Source: Ilyobacter polytropus (GTDB lineage: Bacteria > Fusobacteriota > Fusobacteriia > Fusobacteriales > Fusobacteriaceae). From it: a stretch of DNA of 41,697 nucleotides. The translations under genes and the position numbers were made by a program. The stretch lies in contig QKCP01000139.1 of the NCBI GenBank assembly GCA_003246855.1, forward strand, positions 1-41,697, written 5' to 3'. The notes below the pieces were generated by a model. It was not told the origin of the DNA. It was given only the letters and a program-made list of their open reading frames with translations, and did no database searches. Positions 119 through 39,531 of this stretch are shown here, in pieces (within the stretch, counting starts at the first letter, position 1; each line of letters opens with the position of its first letter).

Positions 119-247
119 TTGTTATAATTTAGAGGTGATGATAAAAAAATCTAGAAAAATTAAGGATAAAAATTAAAATTTCTTGATTTTTTCTAAAAAA
201 GTGTTATAATCATAGGAGTTTTGTTATAATTTGTGGATGATGATAAA
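119..247. repeat. Two-copy direct repeat in the rep leader
   Basis: Copies at 119-145 and 221-247 share TTGTTATAATTT, then five variable bases, then TGATGATAAA. Each includes an extended -10 (TGTTATAAT); a third TGTTATAAT lies at 202-210. The first copy is followed by a possible 12-codon leader (ATG at 138, stop at 174-176) behind AGAGGTG. The second copy runs into the rep start. The repeat could be iteron-like Rep binding sites or a duplicated expression signal; the sequence alone does not decide. No DnaA box was recognised in bases 1-246. Confidence 0.5.
183..210 (+). promoter_or_regulatory. Promoter of the replication initiator
   Basis: TTGATT at 183-188 and TATAAT at 205-210 with a 16-bp spacer and an extended TG upstream of the -10. 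It lies 49 bases before the preferred rep start. A second extended -10 at 223-230 could also serve. Confidence 0.5.
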
Positions 248-258
248 TGGGGGGAAAT

Positions 259-2016
259 ATGACCAAAGATAAAGAGTCTTTGTTTGAGGTTCTTCAAATA
301 GGGGAAAAAGACGATTTTACAATAGATATAAAGTCAGTTAAACCTAAGAAAATTCCTACAAAAACTGTATCTCTTTATTTAGAGGAGATGGATATAAGGG
401 ATACAATTAACCAGCCATTTATATTTATAATACTGCCTTTTTTTACTTCAAAAAGACAGAGAAATGTAAATTTGGTATATGAAATAGAGAATGCTGGCAT
501 TAAATTTGGAGCCTCTCTTAGTTCGGATAATTTTGAAGGTATAAAAAACCAACAGCCATCTGATTTTGAGAAAAACGTGTTCTATTTTATATTGTATAAA
601 TTTCAAGAATTGCTTATGAATGGTGAAGATGCTGATAATATAGTTTTTAATATAGATGAAATTATAGAGTATCTAGGGTTGAAGTTTTCTATGAAATATT
701 ACAGAAAAATGGAGGAAACTCTTTTTAATTTGCAGGGAACGACTTATAAAATTGCCATAAGAAACAGAAAGAAGGCTGGCAATATTATAAGGGAGGTTTA
801 CAAAGAACCTTTAAATCTGATTAGGTATGAAAAGGTAAAAGAAAGAAATACGGTTACTAATAAGATGAAAGTCTATTACAAAGTTACTTTAGATAAGAGA
901 ATAATAGAAGAACTGAGGATAAAGCACTACTCTATTTTCGATAGACATCTCTTAAATGATCTAAGAAAGTCTGATAGAGCTTCTGAAAAGATATATCAGT
1001 TTATCAGTATGAAAAGGTTTTCTAGTGATGAAGGTGAGTACCGTATAGAAACTCTCGCGACTATAATTCCTCTTACACTGACTAGCAGGATAAAAAAGAA
1101 GCTCAAAAATGGTGAAGTAAAGGAATATGAAGTCAGCAAGATGAAACAGGTGGCTAGAAGGATAAAAAAGGCTTTTGATGTACTTGTAAAAAAGAAATAT
1201 TTGCTTAAATATGAAATGGTGGAATTAAAATCTCTGAAGTCTTATAAATTTAGGTATATATTTAACGTGGAAAAAGATAACTATTGTCACATATCAAACC
1301 TTATAGGCAACAAGAAAACCGAGAGGTTGAAACTAATAGAGTTAGATGAGACTAGCAGCCGTACGCCTAAAAAATCAGGAGCATCTTCTGAAAAAGTCGG
1401 AATGACCCAAACTGTATTAGATGAAGTAAAAAGGGCTAAAAAAAATATATATGTTTCCAAAGCCTGGAACAAGTGGGTCGACAATAAGATACAAAAAATA
1501 TATGAAGAAAATGGTGAGGAGTATACTGTAAATATTTTAAGGACCGTGTACAAGAGTCTTAACAAGGAGATAAGCAAGTCTCTTGTGGGTTATATAAATG
1601 GTATAATGAAGAATATGGAAGAAAGCAGCAGTGAAAATCAGCTTTCTTTTGGTAGATATTCACCTGACAAAAATGAAATAGTTGAGATAGAAGCGAATGT
1701 TGAGATAGAGGATGCTGAAATAGTTTTAGAAGATAAAAAGATTGATAATATAAATGTTACAAAAAAATCTAATTTGGACACAACTGAGTTAAAAACTCCA
1801 AAACTTGACTTAGATGATCCGATATCAAAACTTCTTTTAGAACTTTATAGTAAATTATCTGAAAATGAAAAAACTGTGATTAAAACTAAGGCTGTAGAAA
1901 AGTATCTGGAAGCAACAGATAGCGAAGCCATGACAAAAGTGCATGAACAAATATTTAAATCGCTTGAAAAAATATATGTATTAGAGGTTATGAAAGAGGA
2001 TAAAGGTATAGTATAA
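259..2016 (+). CDS. Replication initiator protein, RepB/Rep_3 superfamily
   Basis: Probable plasmid-type initiator that binds origin repeats and opens the DNA. The central part (about residues 85-345) has the look of the two winged-helix Rep_3 fold, with the segment KSDRASEKIYQFISMKRF near its middle. The roughly 240-residue tail is charged and of low complexity, longer than in small-plasmid Rep proteins, and may contact partner proteins. I prefer the ATG at 259 because GGGGGG lies four bases upstream; an in-frame ATG at 247 would add four residues and has no clear ribosome binding site. A small out-of-frame ORF (237-272) overlaps the start, hinting at translational coupling. The stop codon sits inside the left arm of a perfect terminator hairpin. 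The family call is from sequence character, without a search. Confidence 0.8.
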   Translation: MTKDKESLFEVLQIGEKDDFTIDIKSVKPKKIPTKTVSLYLEEMDIRDTINQPFIFIILPFFTSKRQRNVNLVYEIENAGIKFGASLSSDNFEGIKNQQPSDFEKNVFYFILYKFQELLMNGEDADNIVFNIDEIIEYLGLKFSMKYYRKMEETLFNLQGTTYKIAIRNRKKAGNIIREVYKEPLNLIRYEKVKERNTVTNKMKVYYKVTLDKRIIEELRIKHYSIFDRHLLNDLRKSDRASEKIYQFISMKRFSSDEGEYRIETLATIIPLTLTSRIKKKLKNGEVKEYEVSKMKQVARRIKKAFDVLVKKKYLLKYEMVELKSLKSYKFRYIFNVEKDNYCHISNLIGNKKTERLKLIELDETSSRTPKKSGASSEKVGMTQTVLDEVKRAKKNIYVSKAWNKWVDNKIQKIYEENGEEYTVNILRTVYKSLNKEISKSLVGYINGIMKNMEESSSENQLSFGRYSPDKNEIVEIEANVEIEDAEIVLEDKKIDNINVTKKSNLDTTELKTPKLDLDDPISKLLLELYSKLSENEKTVIKTKAVEKYLEATDSEAMTKVHEQIFKSLEKIYVLEVMKEDKGIV

Positions 2017-9597: not shown

Positions 9598-9631
9598 AAA
9601 AAATAAGCCGAACTCTATCGGCTTATTTTTT
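9598..9631. terminator. Bidirectional terminator, lipoprotein / acyl ligase
   Basis: 14-bp stem AAAAAATAAGCCGA / TCGGCTTATTTTTT, loop ACTCTA. It overlaps the last codons of the convergent minus-strand gene. Confidence 0.9.
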
Positions 9632-12079
9632 ATTTGTCCATGCTGTGACATCACTTAGGGTTTTTTCCACTATCTCTTCTATGGTAAGGTTGTGAGGTTC
9701 AATTTTTTGGAAAAATTTTATGCTGAGTTTTTTAGGCCTTGGAAATTTTTTCCCAAAGGAGAAGGCATCATAAGCTCCGTTTATGGCAAAGGGCACCACA
9801 GGTATATCTAACTGTTTACTTAAGATAGCAAATGTTTTTTTAAATTCATTTAAGCTTCCATCCCTCGTTCTAAGGCCTTCCGGAAATATAACTATATTCT
9901 TTCCACTTTGCAAAATTTTTGCTATTTTTTGCAGAGATTCTGTCAGGTTTTTGTTAATATCCACTGTCAGTATATTTGAATTTTTACTGAGATATTTTAG
10001 GATTCCCTTTTCGAAGTGCTTTATTTTTGCCAAATAACAGGTTTTTTCTACCGAGCGGAACCTGAGAGCGTTGTTTATCATTAGGCCGTCTATAAAACTT
10101 TGGTGATTTCCAGCTAATATGCATGGGGTGTTTGGAATATTTTCCACCCCTTCTTTTTTAAATCTAAAATAGAGTTTAAATGCAGGGGACGATAAAAGTT
10201 TTATAAACTTCAGGAATAGGGCAGACTTAGGCAACTCAATGTCATTTTTTGAGTTTAGTATAGCCCCCCAATCCGTACTTGAATTTCCAGTTTTAGTTTT
10301 ATTCGCATTTATGTATACTGAGAGCTCTTCAACAGTTGGATTTTGAAGGAGTATTTTTTCGTTCATGTCTATACCGAAATTATCTCCTATAAACGCAAAC
10401 AGCTCTACCATATCAAGAGAGTCCAATCCTATATCTAGCTCAAGGTGGTAATCCGGTAGCACCTCCCCTTTTCTGCTATTAAGGTATTTTTTCAGTATGT
10501 GGTATTCTTCCAAGTCTGGTTCCTCTATATTTTCATTTTTTTCATCTTTCTCCTTTAAAAGTTCTTGTAGCTTAAAGCGTTTCAACTTACCTATTTTAGT
10601 TTTTGGAAGTTCCTGTTTTACGATTTTTATATGCAGTATCTTTTTATAGGTCGGGACCTTGGAGTTGTATTTGTCGATTACTTTTAGCTTTAGGGTTTCG
10701 ATTATGTTGCTTATCTCTAACTCTTTTATTTTTTTGAAATTAGGGTATATAATGGCAGCAAGTATGCTGTTATGTTCCACAACTCCAACCTCTTCTATTA
10801 GGTCGGTATTGGACAAAATTTCCATTTCGAGCTCTAGTGGATTTATATTTTTCCCATTGGGTAAGACTATCATCTCTTTTTTTCTTCCTGTTATGAAAAT
10901 ATAACCATTTTTCAGATAGCCCTGGTCTCCGGTGTGCAGCCATCCATCCTCGTCGATTATCTCACTGCTTTCTTTTGGATTGCCGAAATATCCCGTCATG
11001 ACGTTTGGTCCCTTAACCAAAATTTCTTTATCTTCTGCTATTTTAACCTGGCACCCTTTTAATACTTTACCGGCCGATCCAATAACGATTTTACCTGGAG
11101 GGGTAAAGCTTATCATAGGTGCACATTCAGTCATACCATAACCCTCTATAAGATCAAACCCAAGCGCCTGATACCCCCTGACTATTTCAGGAGATATCTT
11201 GGCCCCGCCTGATATGAATAATTTTACGTTTCCTCCGAATGCCTGATGGACTTTTTTAAATACCAGTTTGCTTAAATTTTTGCTGTTTATGTTTTTTAAC
11301 ACAAAGTAGGCGACTCTTGTGAAACGTTTTTTCTGTATTTTATCCATTATCCCTTTGAAGAAGATCTCGTAAAGTTTTGGAACTGCTATAAGCAGGGATA
11401 CACTGTTGTTTTGGAAAGCTTCTTTAATTGATTGTAGAGACAACTCTTCTAGTATTACTACTGAAGCACCAACATGCAGGGGCATTATAGCTGATCCTAC
11501 CAAAGGGAATATGTGGTGCAGTGGCAGCACATCTAGGACGACATCTTCTTTTGTATAGATTTCGGAGTCACGGAGGCCACTAAGATTGATTTCTAAATTT
11601 CTATAACTGAGCACTACCCCTTTTGGGTCTCCAGTTGTCCCGGAGGTGTAAAGCATAAGGCAGGGGGAATCCATATCTGGAGTTTTTATGAATACATCCT
11701 CTCCAATATAAATGGAATCCAGATATTCAAAACAGAGCAAGTCTATATTTTCCTGAAGTCTGTTTATCAACGGGTAGAGTTTTTTGTAGCCGGTTTTAGA
11801 GGTGATTATATAGCTTGGTTTGGAGTCCTCTATTAAAAATTTAAACTCCTCTTCGCTACTTGAAAAGTCTACAATTACGCAGATACCCTTTTTTTCCCAA
11901 ACCGCAAAAAAAGCAAATAAAAGCTCCGGCCTATTTTCTGAAAAAATTATTACACGCTCGTATTTTCCAAGCGTCATTTTTTCGCTATATCCCTTTGCAG
12001 ACCTTATGAATTCCTCATAGGATATCTGCCTATTCCCAAAAATTATCGCAGTTTTATTAAAATCTTCTATAAAAACCAA
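9623..12079 (-). CDS. AMP-ligase / acyl carrier / acyltransferase fusion, copy 1
   Basis: Three-domain lipid enzyme. Residues 1-510 form an acyl-adenylating ligase (YTSGTTGDPKG at 144-154, GYGMTECAP at 313-321, TGRKKEMI near 397). Residues 525-595 form an acyl carrier with GLDSLD (Ser554 for phosphopantetheine). Residues 620-818 form a PlsC-type acyltransferase (NHQSFID at 658-664, FPEGLRTR at 732-739). Family knowledge suggests a free fatty acid is activated, loaded on the built-in carrier and passed to a lysophospholipid. Domain order is reversed relative to E. coli Aas (acyltransferase first), and the embedded carrier is extra. Start is TTG with AGGGGG seven bases upstream. It is a tandem paralog of the next gene, but a terminator lies between them. 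Confidence 0.85.
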   Translation of the reverse strand: MVFIEDFNKTAIIFGNRQISYEEFIRSAKGYSEKMTLGKYERVIIFSENRPELLFAFFAVWEKKGICVIVDFSSSEEEFKFLIEDSKPSYIITSKTGYKKLYPLINRLQENIDLLCFEYLDSIYIGEDVFIKTPDMDSPCLMLYTSGTTGDPKGVVLSYRNLEINLSGLRDSEIYTKEDVVLDVLPLHHIFPLVGSAIMPLHVGASVVILEELSLQSIKEAFQNNSVSLLIAVPKLYEIFFKGIMDKIQKKRFTRVAYFVLKNINSKNLSKLVFKKVHQAFGGNVKLFISGGAKISPEIVRGYQALGFDLIEGYGMTECAPMISFTPPGKIVIGSAGKVLKGCQVKIAEDKEILVKGPNVMTGYFGNPKESSEIIDEDGWLHTGDQGYLKNGYIFITGRKKEMIVLPNGKNINPLELEMEILSNTDLIEEVGVVEHNSILAAIIYPNFKKIKELEISNIIETLKLKVIDKYNSKVPTYKKILHIKIVKQELPKTKIGKLKRFKLQELLKEKDEKNENIEEPDLEEYHILKKYLNSRKGEVLPDYHLELDIGLDSLDMVELFAFIGDNFGIDMNEKILLQNPTVEELSVYINANKTKTGNSSTDWGAILNSKNDIELPKSALFLKFIKLLSSPAFKLYFRFKKEGVENIPNTPCILAGNHQSFIDGLMINNALRFRSVEKTCYLAKIKHFEKGILKYLSKNSNILTVDINKNLTESLQKIAKILQSGKNIVIFPEGLRTRDGSLNEFKKTFAILSKQLDIPVVPFAINGAYDAFSFGKKFPRPKKLSIKFFQKIEPHNLTIEEIVEKTLSDVTAWTNKK

Positions 12080-35326: not shown

Positions 35327-36526
35327 TTATGCTTCTGCAAGGATATTCTTTTTGTTGTTGAAAAAGCGCCATAATGCTAGATTTAAAATTGCAACCAAGA
35401 AATTTACTCCCCCTAAAAGTATAATATTGCTCCCTATATTAAACGAAGTCAGTAACATTCCTATACCTCCAAAAACTGTAAAGGAAAAATTTATTGCGGA
35501 AGAAACCGCCCCGGTATCACCATTTTGCTGGCTAAACATTAAGTTTACTCCCAAAGGACGGATTGCACTGCCGAAAAGAGTTGCCGGAATAAGTGACACC
35601 GCAAATACAATCGGGCTTAAAGTTCCTAAAAAATAGATAGTTATTCCACTAGCCATAGTGATAAACAAACTCAGGTTTACTATAGTTTTATAGGCATATT
35701 TTTTGGAAAGCCTTAAATACAACAGCGGACCTATTATTGAAAATACAGCGTTTGTAGCAAAGTAGAAACTATAGGTCTGTTCACTCAAACCGAACTCTTC
35801 TACATAAATATATGCTGATGAAGATACATATGTCATAAGGGGTACGGCCATAAGTGAAAATATTATGAGCGAGGTTGAAAAGCTCCTGTTTTTTAATACA
35901 AAAAACAGCCTACTTACAGCCCCGTATACACTGCCAAGGTACCTGTTTTCTATGGTTTCTTCATACAGAACTACCAAAAATAGTGACAACCCACCCAGCA
36001 GACTCAACGTTAAGAAGATTCCCTTCCACGATGTGTAGTTTAAGATAAATGCTCCAAGCAGAGGGGCTACTATTGGAGCTATCATTGCCATTGACTGTAT
36101 AAGTGCCAGCATTGTCTCCCTTTTTTTATCCTCGAAAGAATCCTTGACTATTGCATTCGTCACAGCTATGACAGCACCGCTTCCAACCGCCTGGAAAATC
36201 CTGCAGGATATTAGAAAATATACGTTGTTTGCAAGTGAGCATAGAATGCTTCCCGATATATATATTCCAAGTCCTGCTAACAGTACTGGTTTCCTGCCGT
36301 ACTTATCGCTTAAAGGCCCCCAGAAAAGTGTCGCTATTCCAAAGACCATGTAAAACGACGTCAGGGTTAGGTTCACAAGTCCAGAAGAGGCGTGAAGAGC
36401 TTCTGACATTGTAGGAAGTGCGGGCAGGTACATGTCTATGGATAGTGGGATAAATGCACTCAAAAGGACCAGCATAGCCATGAGTCCTTTTTCTTTAAGG
36501 TACTTTTGTTTGACTATTTTATCCAT
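35327..36526 (-). CDS. Bcr/CflA-family MFS drug transporter
   Basis: 12-helix major facilitator of the drug:proton antiporter-1 Bcr/CflA type. Motifs include SIDMYLPALPTM in helix 1 (the D and LP are family-typical), the loop motif GPLSDKYGRKPVLL, and QAVGSGAVIAVTNAIVKD in helix 4. The 399 residues are complete. Promoter and ribosome binding site (AGGAGGG) are upstream; it is monocistronic. Family members export bicyclomycin, chloramphenicol or sulfonamides, but also small metabolites; substrate unknown. Confidence 0.9.
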   Translation of the reverse strand: MDKIVKQKYLKEKGLMAMLVLLSAFIPLSIDMYLPALPTMSEALHASSGLVNLTLTSFYMVFGIATLFWGPLSDKYGRKPVLLAGLGIYISGSILCSLANNVYFLISCRIFQAVGSGAVIAVTNAIVKDSFEDKKRETMLALIQSMAMIAPIVAPLLGAFILNYTSWKGIFLTLSLLGGLSLFLVVLYEETIENRYLGSVYGAVSRLFFVLKNRSFSTSLIIFSLMAVPLMTYVSSSAYIYVEEFGLSEQTYSFYFATNAVFSIIGPLLYLRLSKKYAYKTIVNLSLFITMASGITIYFLGTLSPIVFAVSLIPATLFGSAIRPLGVNLMFSQQNGDTGAVSSAINFSFTVFGGIGMLLTSFNIGSNIILLGGVNFLVAILNLALWRFFNNKKNILAEA

Positions 36527-36818: not shown

Positions 36819-36848
36819 TTGACATATTTAACAGTTGTAGGGTATACT
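36819..36848 (+). promoter_or_regulatory. Promoter of the candidate noncoding RNA
   Basis: TTGACA (36819-36824), 18-bp spacer, TATACT (36843-36848). Expected transcript start near 36855. Confidence 0.65.
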
Positions 36849-36854
36849 ATTCGT

Positions 36855-37016
36855 GGATGTCATATCATTCTTTTATTAAAATTTCCAGATATTTACCGGG
36901 GGGGCTAATACCTGGAAGTTTAGATTATATGCTGTTTGGATCGAATCAGCATATTTTCATATTTTCATAATTTTATAACACTCCTGCAAAGAGAGCTCGT
37001 ACGGGCTCTCTTTGCG
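36855..37016 (+). ncRNA. Candidate structured noncoding RNA, about 160 nt
   Basis: A promoter and a terminator-like hairpin bracket about 160 bases with no supported ORF inside a 667-base gene-free stretch (36527-37193). Hairpin 1 pairs AAATTTCCAG (36879-36888) with CTGGAAGTTT (36912-36921) and exposes a loop with seven consecutive G. Hairpin 2 pairs ATATGCTG (36927-36934) with CAGCATAT (36947-36954). The last hairpin, GCAAAGAGAGC / GCTCTCTTTGC (36986-37015), is followed by GTTTAATAG, a weak U-tract. No match to tmRNA, 6S, SRP or known riboswitches was recognised. A 37-codon leaderless frame from ATG 36857 is open but has no ribosome binding site. The next gene begins about 180 bases later, so a long leader for it is an alternative. 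Confidence 0.5.
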
Positions 37017-37193
37017 TTTAATAGATATGAAACCATTTAACCTAATTATTTTCATATTTTTTTTTACTTGAAATGTGACTTTTTGAGGAGTAAAATTAAA
37101 ATATGATTTCACATAAAAATTTGAGTCAAGATAAAAGGCGGCTAAAACAGTAAAAATGACAGTAACTATAAAAGGATTTTATAGGGGGATTAA

Positions 37194-37556
37194 ATGAGTG
37201 AAATTGTAGTGAGAACAAAATCGGAATTAAAAGAAGCTGTTAAAATGAAACATGAAAAAATTATAGTAAAGGGAGCATTGGCTGAGACATTAAATAGCGC
37301 ATTGAAGATCAGGAAACTTTCCAAGATCACCCTAGGGGTCTTATCAGCCGCCGTAATAACAACTCCATTTTCAGGGGCATTGAGTACAGCTGCAGCCGCT
37401 CCAATAGCAGCCTCAACCGGTTTGGAAGCAGTGACAATAATTGCGGTTTCTTTTCTGGGGTTATCGTTAATTTTAGAAATTTTCAAAGATTATAAAAAAG
37501 CGAAATTCAAAGTAAAAACCGAAGATTACAAAGCTGAACTACATTTAGAAAAATAG
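37194..37556 (+). CDS. Hypothetical small membrane protein
   Basis: 120 residues. The N-terminal third is soluble and charged (VRTKSELKEAVKMKHEKIIVKG). Then comes a hydrophobic, alanine-rich region (about residues 42-90) that can form two helices, including AAVITTPFSGALSTAAAAP and ASTGLEAVTIIAVSFLG. The tail is charged. The AAAAPIAASTGLE segment has the glycine/alanine pattern of small membrane-active proteins such as holins or toxin-like proteins, but I do not recognise a family with certainty. Ribosome binding site GGGGG, seven bases away. It may be expressed alone or through readthrough of the upstream candidate RNA. Confidence 0.6.
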   Translation: MSEIVVRTKSELKEAVKMKHEKIIVKGALAETLNSALKIRKLSKITLGVLSAAVITTPFSGALSTAAAAPIAASTGLEAVTIIAVSFLGLSLILEIFKDYKKAKFKVKTEDYKAELHLEK

Positions 37557-37724: not shown

Positions 37725-37979
37725 ATGGGAAATATTGAAACTAGGGTTGCAATCTTAGCAATTATTGTTGAAGATGAAATTTCCATAGATAAACTTAATA
37801 AGATTCTTTTTCAGTATAGACAGTATATAATTGGTAGAATGGGTTTGCCATATGCAAAAAAGAATATTAATGTAATTAGCATAATTGTAGATGCACCTCA
37901 AAATACTATAAGTGCACTTTCTGGAAAAGTTGGCAAATTAAAAGGAATCACTTCAAAAACTACTTATTCAAAAGTTTAA
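37725..37979 (+). CDS. TM1266-type [FeFe]-hydrogenase system regulator
   Basis: 84-residue ferredoxin-like (ACT/NikR-C-like) protein. The pattern ETRVAILAIIVEDEISIDKLNKILFQY ... IIGRMGLPYAKKNINVISIIVDAPQNTISALSGKVGKLKGITSKT matches the family annotated as iron-only hydrogenase system regulator (TM1266), commonly found next to hydrogenase maturation genes. No DNA-binding domain is present, so it probably acts as a small-molecule-binding or protein-interaction regulator. It precedes hydG by 133 bases with no terminator between and shares its promoter. Confidence 0.85.
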   Translation: MGNIETRVAILAIIVEDEISIDKLNKILFQYRQYIIGRMGLPYAKKNINVISIIVDAPQNTISALSGKVGKLKGITSKTTYSKV

Positions 37980-38112
37980 AAAGTTTTTGAAGGATTTTTT
38001 ATTACTTGTTATGTGATTATTTTCTTTTAAAGATTTGAAAAATATTTTTTTGTTAAAAATTTCATAGCTGAAGGGAAAGAAATTCTGACCCGATTAAGAA
38101 AGGAGATTTATA

Positions 38113-39531
38113 ATGTATAATCCAAAATCGACAAAATCAGAGGAATTTATATCGCATAATGAAATACTGGCAACTCTTGACTATGCTGAAAGCAATAAGA
38201 ATAATTTGGAATTAATCGACAAGATAATTGAAAAAGCAAAATTAAGAAAAGGTCTTTCTTATAAAGAAGCAACAGTGTTATTGGAGTGTAATATTGAAGA
38301 GAAAAATAAAGAAATATTTGCATTAGCTGAGCAAATTAAAAAAGATTTTTATGGTAATAGAATTGTAATGTTTGCTCCATTATATTTATCTAATTATTGC
38401 ATAAACGGTTGCGTATACTGCCCGTATCATTTAAAAAATAAAAATATAGCTAGAAAAAAAATGACTCAAGAAGAGATTCGAAGAGAAGTTATAGCTTTAC
38501 AAGATATGGGGCATAAAAGATTAGCTATAGAAGCAGGAGAAGACCCGGTAAATAATCCTATTGAATATATTTTGGAATGTATTAATACAATATACAATAC
38601 AGTACATAAAAATGGTGCAATCAGACGTGTAAATGTAAATATTGCAGCAACAACTGTGGAAAACTATAAAAAATTAAAAGATGCAAATATCGGGACATAC
38701 ATATTATTCCAAGAAACTTATCATAAAGAGAGTTACGAAAAGCTGCATCCAACAGGCCCAAAGCACAATTATGATTATCATACTGAAGCTATGGATAGAG
38801 CAATGCAAGCAGGTATAGATGATGTCGGTCTTGGAGTACTGTTTGGATTGGAGTTATATAGATATGAATTTGCAGGATTATTAATGCATGCAGAGCATTT
38901 AGAGGCAGCATATGGCGTAGGACCACATACAGTAAGTGTTCCGAGAATACGTCCGGCTGATGATATTGATCCGTCTACTTTTGATAATGGGATAAATGAT
39001 GAAATATTTGAAAAAATAGTTTCTTGTATAAGAATATCATTACCTTATACAGGGATGATAGTATCGACTAGAGAAAACCAAAAATGCAGAGAAAAAGTAT
39101 TGCATCTTGGTATATCTCAAATTAGTGGAGCTTCTAAAACAAGTGTCGGAGGGTATGCAGAACCTGAACCTGAAGAAGAAAATTCAGCTCAATTTGATGT
39201 AAGTGACAATCGTACATTAGATGAAGTTGTTAAATGGTTAATGGAAATGGATTATATTCCTAGTTTTTGTACAGCATGTTATAGAGAAGGGCGTACAGGT
39301 GATAGATTTATGAGCCTTTGCAAAAGCGGAGAAATACAAAATTGTTGTCATCCAAATGCACTTATGACATTAAAAGAGTATTTAGAAGATTATGCCTCAA
39401 CTGAAACAAGAGAAATTGGCGAAAAATTAATAAAAAATGAACTTGATAATGTACCAAAAGCGAAAGTTAGGGAAATCGTAGAGAGAAATTTATATAACAT
39501 ATCAGATGGAAAACGTGATTTTAGATTTTAA
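38113..39531 (+). CDS. hydG: [FeFe]-hydrogenase H-cluster maturase HydG
   Basis: Radical-SAM tyrosine lyase that supplies CO and cyanide as an Fe(CO)(CN)-type synthon for the H-cluster. The radical-SAM cluster site is C96-x3-C100-x2-C103 in NYCINGCVYC; the auxiliary cluster site C386-x2-C389-x22-C412 is intact, which separates HydG from its relative ThiH. At 472 residues it is full length. Ribosome binding site AAAGGAG. HydE, HydF and a hydrogenase are not in this window and must be elsewhere if the system works. A strong terminator follows, then insertion-sequence debris, so this may be the end of a transferred block. Confidence 0.95.
   Translation: MYNPKSTKSEEFISHNEILATLDYAESNKNNLELIDKIIEKAKLRKGLSYKEATVLLECNIEEKNKEIFALAEQIKKDFYGNRIVMFAPLYLSNYCINGCVYCPYHLKNKNIARKKMTQEEIRREVIALQDMGHKRLAIEAGEDPVNNPIEYILECINTIYNTVHKNGAIRRVNVNIAATTVENYKKLKDANIGTYILFQETYHKESYEKLHPTGPKHNYDYHTEAMDRAMQAGIDDVGLGVLFGLELYRYEFAGLLMHAEHLEAAYGVGPHTVSVPRIRPADDIDPSTFDNGINDEIFEKIVSCIRISLPYTGMIVSTRENQKCREKVLHLGISQISGASKTSVGGYAEPEPEEENSAQFDVSDNRTLDEVVKWLMEMDYIPSFCTACYREGRTGDRFMSLCKSGEIQNCCHPNALMTLKEYLEDYASTETREIGEKLIKNELDNVPKAKVREIVERNLYNISDGKRDFRF

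What the first reader, a model, noticed from the sequence alone, without database searches (positions are those of the whole stretch)
36819..37016. Promoter-to-terminator noncoding RNA with a seven-G loop
Seen: a good promoter, a 10-bp hairpin exposing a G7-containing loop, a second 8-bp hairpin and an 11-bp GC-rich terminator-like hairpin, all in a 667-base gene-free stretch. A G-rich loop could pair with C-rich mRNA segments or mimic a ribosome binding site. It does not resemble the common housekeeping RNAs I know.
Basis: partly seen in the sequence, partly recalled or inferred. Interest (0 to 1): 0.6.

Follow-up and report, generated by a model that had tools for sequence, protein, structure and literature searches.

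The report
Orphan three-hairpin small RNA candidate
A 160-base gene-free stretch of a Fusobacterium-relative's genome looks like a small regulatory RNA with its own promoter and a G-rich hairpin loop, but no relative of it was found anywhere searched, so it is a plausible single-genome small RNA of an ordinary kind rather than a new type of system.

Summary
The observation mostly holds. Window 36819-37016 has an 11/12 sigma-70-type promoter (TTGACA-18-TATACT), then three hairpins: P1 36879-36921, P2 36923-36958, T 36986-37015. All lie in a 667-base stretch without convincing genes. The 36855-37016 strand folds far better than shuffles (z about -7; flanks z about 0). Corrections: P1 is about 16 pairs, not 10. 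The G7 is only partly exposed (four or five unpaired G). T is a 13-14 bp stem without a proper U-run, unlike the clear terminators of this window. An unnoticed 37-codon ORF (36857-36970) runs through P1 and P2.

Host: a Fusobacteriaceae genome related to Ilyobacter, probably a second replicon. No homologue was found: Rfam, BLASTN in 61 family genomes, plasmids and phages, covariance models in 96-98 order/class genomes, exact patterns in viral and GTDB contigs. Covariation was therefore untestable.

Best reading: a lineage-specific, about 160-nt, independently transcribed sRNA (about 0.5). Most likely mechanism: the G-loop, which imitates poly-G Shine-Dalgarno sites of this genome, pairs with a C-rich partner, as RosA does with RoxS/FsrA. 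Partner and transcript are unproven. Rivals: a leader of the gene at 37194, a small-protein mRNA, or an untranscribed palindrome.

The parts
36819..36848 (+). sigma-70-type promoter-like site TTGACA-N18-TATACT; predicted start of transcription near 36855
   Evidence: 11 of 12 consensus matches; about 5% of shuffles of the intergenic stretch hold one as good
36879..36921 (+). hairpin P1: 10-bp outer stem AAATTTCCAG/CTGGAAGTTT, 1x1 bulge, 4-bp TATT/AATA, inner CC/GG; loop region ACCGGGGGGGCTA
   Evidence: RNA fold; z -3.1 alone
36898..36904 (+). run of seven G in the P1 apex; four certainly and a fifth mostly unpaired in the predicted ensemble
   Evidence: base-pair probabilities
36923..36958 (+). 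hairpin P2 (ATATGCTG/CAGCATAT stem plus an inner 4-bp stem)
   Evidence: RNA fold; z -4.1 alone
36959..36985 (+). A/U-rich, mostly unpaired linker ending in ACACTCCT, which holds CUCCU (complement of AGGAG)
   Evidence: sequence and ensemble accessibility
36986..37015 (+). hairpin T: near-perfect palindrome GCAAAGAGAGCTC-GTAC-GGGCTCTCTTTGC, terminator-like but followed only by GTTTAAT
   Evidence: fold -23 kcal/mol, z -7.4; no terminator call by the scan; AGAGCTC-type stems recur among weak model matches in relatives
36857..36970 (+). 37-codon open frame MSYHSFIKISRYLPGGLIPGSLDYMLFGSNQHIFIFS overlapping P1 and P2, starting about 2 nt after the predicted transcription start, without a Shine-Dalgarno site
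   Evidence: translation; coding score between genes and intergenic DNA; no tblastn hit in phages or plasmids
37194..37556 (+). downstream gene: 120-aa small membrane-like protein with its own AGGGGG Shine-Dalgarno; not part of the RNA, possible leader target
   Evidence: ORF; phrog_25580 E 9e-18; no Pfam or NCBIfam match; no homologue in 96 order genomes

Best explanation
A lineage-specific small RNA of about 160 nt, transcribed from its own sigma-70-type promoter at about 36855 and ending at hairpin T near 37016-37022. Inferred mechanism: the stable P1 stem presents a G-rich apical loop that looks like the poly-G Shine-Dalgarno sites of this genome. The loop pairs with a C-rich seed of another RNA (a FoxI/FoxJ- or RoxS-like sRNA, or a C-rich mRNA segment), sequestering or destabilising it; P2 and T act as stabilising or terminating elements. 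Shown here: promoter match, fold significance, loop exposure in the predicted ensemble, lack of homologues. Inferred: transcription, termination, partner and effect. I put the independent sRNA at about 0.5, and the sponge/decoy mechanism given that at about 0.3.
For: Promoter 11/12 placed just before the hairpins. Fold z about -7 confined to 36855-37022, with flanks at z about 0. Four to five G of the loop unpaired. GGGGGGGCTA also occurs as a ribosome-binding-site-like GGGGGGGCTATG elsewhere in this genome (L182), and G-runs precede 4 of 22 starts in the window. The host belongs to the Fusobacteria: RepA is 62% identical to the Ilyobacter polytropus 961-kb plasmid. In Fusobacterium nucleatum the sRNAs FoxI and FoxJ act through C-stretches, and FoxJ's C-hexamer was proposed to bind G-stretches (PMC11005410). 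RosA of Bacillus subtilis is a stand-alone G-rich sponge of C-rich sRNAs (PMC8216469).
Against: No RNA-seq. No homologue outside this genome, so no covariation or conservation. T lacks a U-run. No C-rich sRNA partner was found: of 13 other TAGCCCCCC sites in the genome none was a convincing sRNA; most lie in long ORFs, one is in a terminator and one is antisense to a probable lysine-riboswitch leader. No C-run of five or more was found near der (the position of FoxJ) in any of the six genomes examined, the host included, though its locus was cut just after der. The minus strand of the region folds almost as well (z -8.8), so part of the signal is simply DNA palindromes.
Confidence: 0.5

Rival explanations
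1. A structured 5' leader (attenuator or regulatory UTR) of the gene at 37194 and perhaps the following TM1266-like and hydG genes: transcription starts at 36855 and T decides between stopping and read-through.
For: Same strand, promoter upstream, strong hairpin T without a U-run (read-through likely), 178 bases from T to the start codon.
Against: No competing antiterminator: forbidding T leaves its halves unpaired and costs 24 kcal/mol. P1 and P2 do not share sequence with T. The downstream gene has its own Shine-Dalgarno and another promoter-like site at 37068-37096. No match to any riboswitch or leader family.
Confidence: 0.22
2. A small-protein mRNA: the 37-codon frame 36857-36970 is translated from a nearly leaderless start and T is its terminator.
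For: The frame begins at the predicted transcription start and spans both hairpins; coding score -0.12 bits per codon, above the intergenic mean (-0.81, sd 0.48), below genes (0.34, sd 0.16).
Against: No Shine-Dalgarno; no homologue by tblastn in phages or plasmids and no family match; a neighbouring frame scores about the same; stable stems are unusual inside a short coding region.
Confidence: 0.1
3. No RNA gene: chance promoter-like site in A+T-rich DNA next to DNA palindromes or remnants of a mobile element.
For: Promoter-like sites at 9/12 or better are no commoner than chance here (11 against 8.8); palindromes fold on both strands; no conservation.
Against: No other copy in the genome, so not a dispersed element; the specific 11/12 site and three successive significant hairpins in one 160-nt stretch are unlikely together.
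Confidence: 0.18

Closest known systems
RosA (Bacillus subtilis sponge sRNA of RoxS and FsrA; PMC8216469)
   Same: Stand-alone small RNA from a vegetative-type promoter with exposed G-rich stretches able to pair with C-rich sRNA seeds; lineage-restricted.
   Different: RosA is about 225-229 nt with three G-rich regions, verified partners and a Rho-independent terminator; here there is one G-run, no known partner and no sequence similarity established.
FoxI / FoxJ (sigmaE-dependent sRNAs of Fusobacterium nucleatum; PMC11005410)
   Same: Same phylum; FoxJ is similar in length (about 156 nt) and structured.
   Different: They carry C-stretch seeds and a sigmaE promoter; this RNA carries a G-run and a sigma-70-type promoter. 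It could be a partner of such RNAs, not one of them.
RsaI (RsaOG) of Staphylococcus aureus (as described in PMC8216469)
   Same: Stand-alone sRNA whose G-rich regions bind C-rich sRNAs.
   Different: RsaI has two G-rich regions and a C-rich region; the candidate matches no Rfam family.

Membership tests
Bacterial stand-alone intergenic sRNA | own promoter | tested here: met
   11/12 consensus by sequence only; activity not testable
Bacterial stand-alone intergenic sRNA | significant secondary structure | tested here: met
   z about -7
Bacterial stand-alone intergenic sRNA | intrinsic terminator with U-run | tested here: inconclusive
   13-14 bp GC-rich stem present but followed by GTTTAAT; scan finds no terminator
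Bacterial stand-alone intergenic sRNA | discrete transcript | not testable with these tools
   no expression data
Bacterial stand-alone intergenic sRNA | conservation or covariation in relatives (supporting, not strictly defining) | tested here: inconclusive
   no homologue in 61 family genomes by BLASTN, or in 96 order / 98 class genomes by covariance model; but no other species of the same genus is held, so covariation could not be tested
Any Rfam family | score above the gathering threshold | tested here: not met
   only three tRNAs in the window; permissive scan gives chance-level matches, E 3.4 or worse
RosA/RsaI-type sponge | accessible G-rich region | tested here: met
   G-run four to five bases unpaired in the predicted fold
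RosA/RsaI-type sponge | C-rich sRNA partner in the same genome | tested here: inconclusive
   none recognised among the TAGCCCCCC sites; C-rich sRNAs not searched exhaustively
cis-acting riboswitch/attenuator leader | mutually exclusive terminator and antiterminator | tested here: not met
   no alternative pairing for T

The most novel reading that the evidence does not exclude
A G-loop sponge RNA that imitates poly-G ribosome-binding sites to titrate C-seed sRNAs in a phylum whose studied member lacks Hfq and ProQ, i.e. an anti-sRNA within a FoxI/FoxJ type of network.
Probability: 0.12. Interest if true: 0.5.

Novelty: new member of a known kind. Interest (0 to 1): 0.25.

Why it matters
If transcribed, it adds an uncharacterised sRNA to a phylum with few studied ones, and its G-loop gives a direct, mutable prediction (pairing with C-stretch RNAs). 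Without homologues or expression data it remains one of many plausible single-genome sRNA candidates.

Tried and rejected
Rfam at gathering and permissive thresholds: nothing relevant. BLASTN of the RNA in 61 family genomes: outside the host genome, only 20-39-nt A+T-rich matches at E above 1e-4. Covariance model R1 (whole RNA) in 96 order genomes: weak matches (23-25 bits at best), mostly driven by T-like AGAGCTC stems or A+T-rich stretches, none with a G-rich P1; read and rejected. R2 (P1+P2) in 98 class genomes: only itself. R1 in 80 hydG neighbourhoods of other bacteria: nothing. Exact and near-exact P1 patterns in viral and GTDB contigs: none. Plasmids and phages: none. Synteny through the MFS transporter: not kept in the nearest relatives. 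Dispersed repeat: no other copy. FoxJ-like C-run near der: not found in six genomes, the host's locus being cut just after der. C-partner scan: one IGR candidate (L179) rejected because its other strand reads like a lysine-riboswitch leader before dapF (my reading of the sequence; not run through Rfam). RNA duplex scores against gene starts were dominated by long A+T-rich pairing and are not used.

Full report
What is there. The + strand at 36819-36848 carries TTGACA, 18 bases, TATACT, the best sigma-70-type match in the surrounding 1.8 kb. Sites this good are found in about 5% of shuffles of the 667-base stretch, although seven occur in the whole window. From the predicted start at about 36855 the sequence forms P1 (36879-36921), P2 (36923-36958), an A/U-rich linker and the strong palindrome T (36986-37015). 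The 36855-37016 strand folds at -55.3 kcal/mol, z -7.0. T contributes most (z -7.4), P2 -4.1, P1 -3.1, and the DNA on either side is unremarkable. In a scan of the whole window, the windows at 36901 and 36961 rank fourth and fifth of 693; the other top windows lie near gene ends with strong hairpins.

P1 has about 16 pairs. Its inner CC pairs with two of the seven G, so four are unpaired and a fifth mostly so. T is 13-14 bp but is followed by GTTTAAT and is not recognised as an intrinsic terminator; clear terminators elsewhere in this window end in T-runs. Its coding score lies between that of genes and intergenic DNA, a neighbouring frame scores about the same, it has no Shine-Dalgarno site, and nothing similar was found.

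Where it sits. The genome (G000) is the only held member of its genus. The RepA-like protein at 247-2016 is 62% identical over its length to the first gene of the 961-kb plasmid of Ilyobacter polytropus, and all other matches are Fusobacteriota. The long acyl-activating protein at 9623-12079 also matches I. polytropus and Fusobacterium best. I therefore read the host as an Ilyobacter-like member of the Fusobacteriaceae, with the contig probably the rep end of a second replicon; this is inference. The RNA lies between a divergent MFS transporter (35327-36526, minus) and a 120-aa gene (37194-37556, plus), followed by a TM1266-like regulator and hydG.

Relatives. None: Rfam, BLASTN in 61 family genomes, the whole-RNA model in 96 order genomes, the P1+P2 model in 98 class genomes, 80 hydG neighbourhoods of other bacteria, plasmids and phages, exact patterns in viral and GTDB contigs. 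The weak model matches were read and rest mainly on T-like AGAGCTC stems or A+T-rich stretches. The nearest relatives of the transporter do not share the neighbourhood. Because no congeneric genome is held, fast-evolving homologues in the same genus cannot be excluded, and covariation could not be tested.

Mechanism. I favour an independent sRNA because the promoter abuts the folded stretch and T has no alternative partner, which speaks against a switchable leader. The loop string GGGGGGGCTA also occurs as GGGGGGGCTATG at what looks like a ribosome-binding site elsewhere in the genome (L182), and G-runs precede several starts in the window. A loop that looks like a ribosome-binding site is the natural bait for C-seed sRNAs. 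In Fusobacterium nucleatum FoxI and FoxJ act through C-stretches, and a G-stretch was proposed as FoxJ's site in five activated operons (PMC11005410). In Bacillus subtilis RosA is a proven stand-alone G-rich sponge for the C-rich RoxS and FsrA (PMC8216469). No C-rich partner was found here, so this step is a hypothesis.

Verdict. A real, unusually structured intergenic stretch with a good promoter, plausibly an sRNA, with no evidence of conservation. It belongs to a common kind (species-restricted sRNA candidates). Interest 0.25.

Noticed in passing
247-2016 (+): RepA-like protein 62% identical to the first gene of the Ilyobacter polytropus 961-kb plasmid: the contig is probably part of a second replicon of a Fusobacteriaceae bacterium.
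   Followed up: partly
37194-37556 (+): 120-aa membrane-like protein without Pfam or NCBIfam match, but phrog_25580 (unknown function) at E 9e-18 and a weak holin/anti-holin match; no homologue in 96 order genomes and no tblastn hit in phages or plasmids.
   Followed up: partly
37725-39531 (+): TM1266-like regulator and HydG; HydG is 81-83% identical to Clostridia such as Lutispora and Sedimentibacter, and the genome holds a second TM1266 on contig C126: these hydrogenase genes may have been acquired.
   Followed up: partly
37103-37153 (+): 16-codon frame MISHKNLSQDKRRLKQ behind GAGGAGT, between hairpin T and the 120-aa gene; AGGAGT is complementary to ACUCCU just before T.
   Followed up: no
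L179 1282-1828 (genome contig C30): The intergenic stretch before dapF reads like a lysine riboswitch on the dapF strand, ending in GGGGGGCTATCAGC; judged by eye, not run through Rfam.
   Followed up: no
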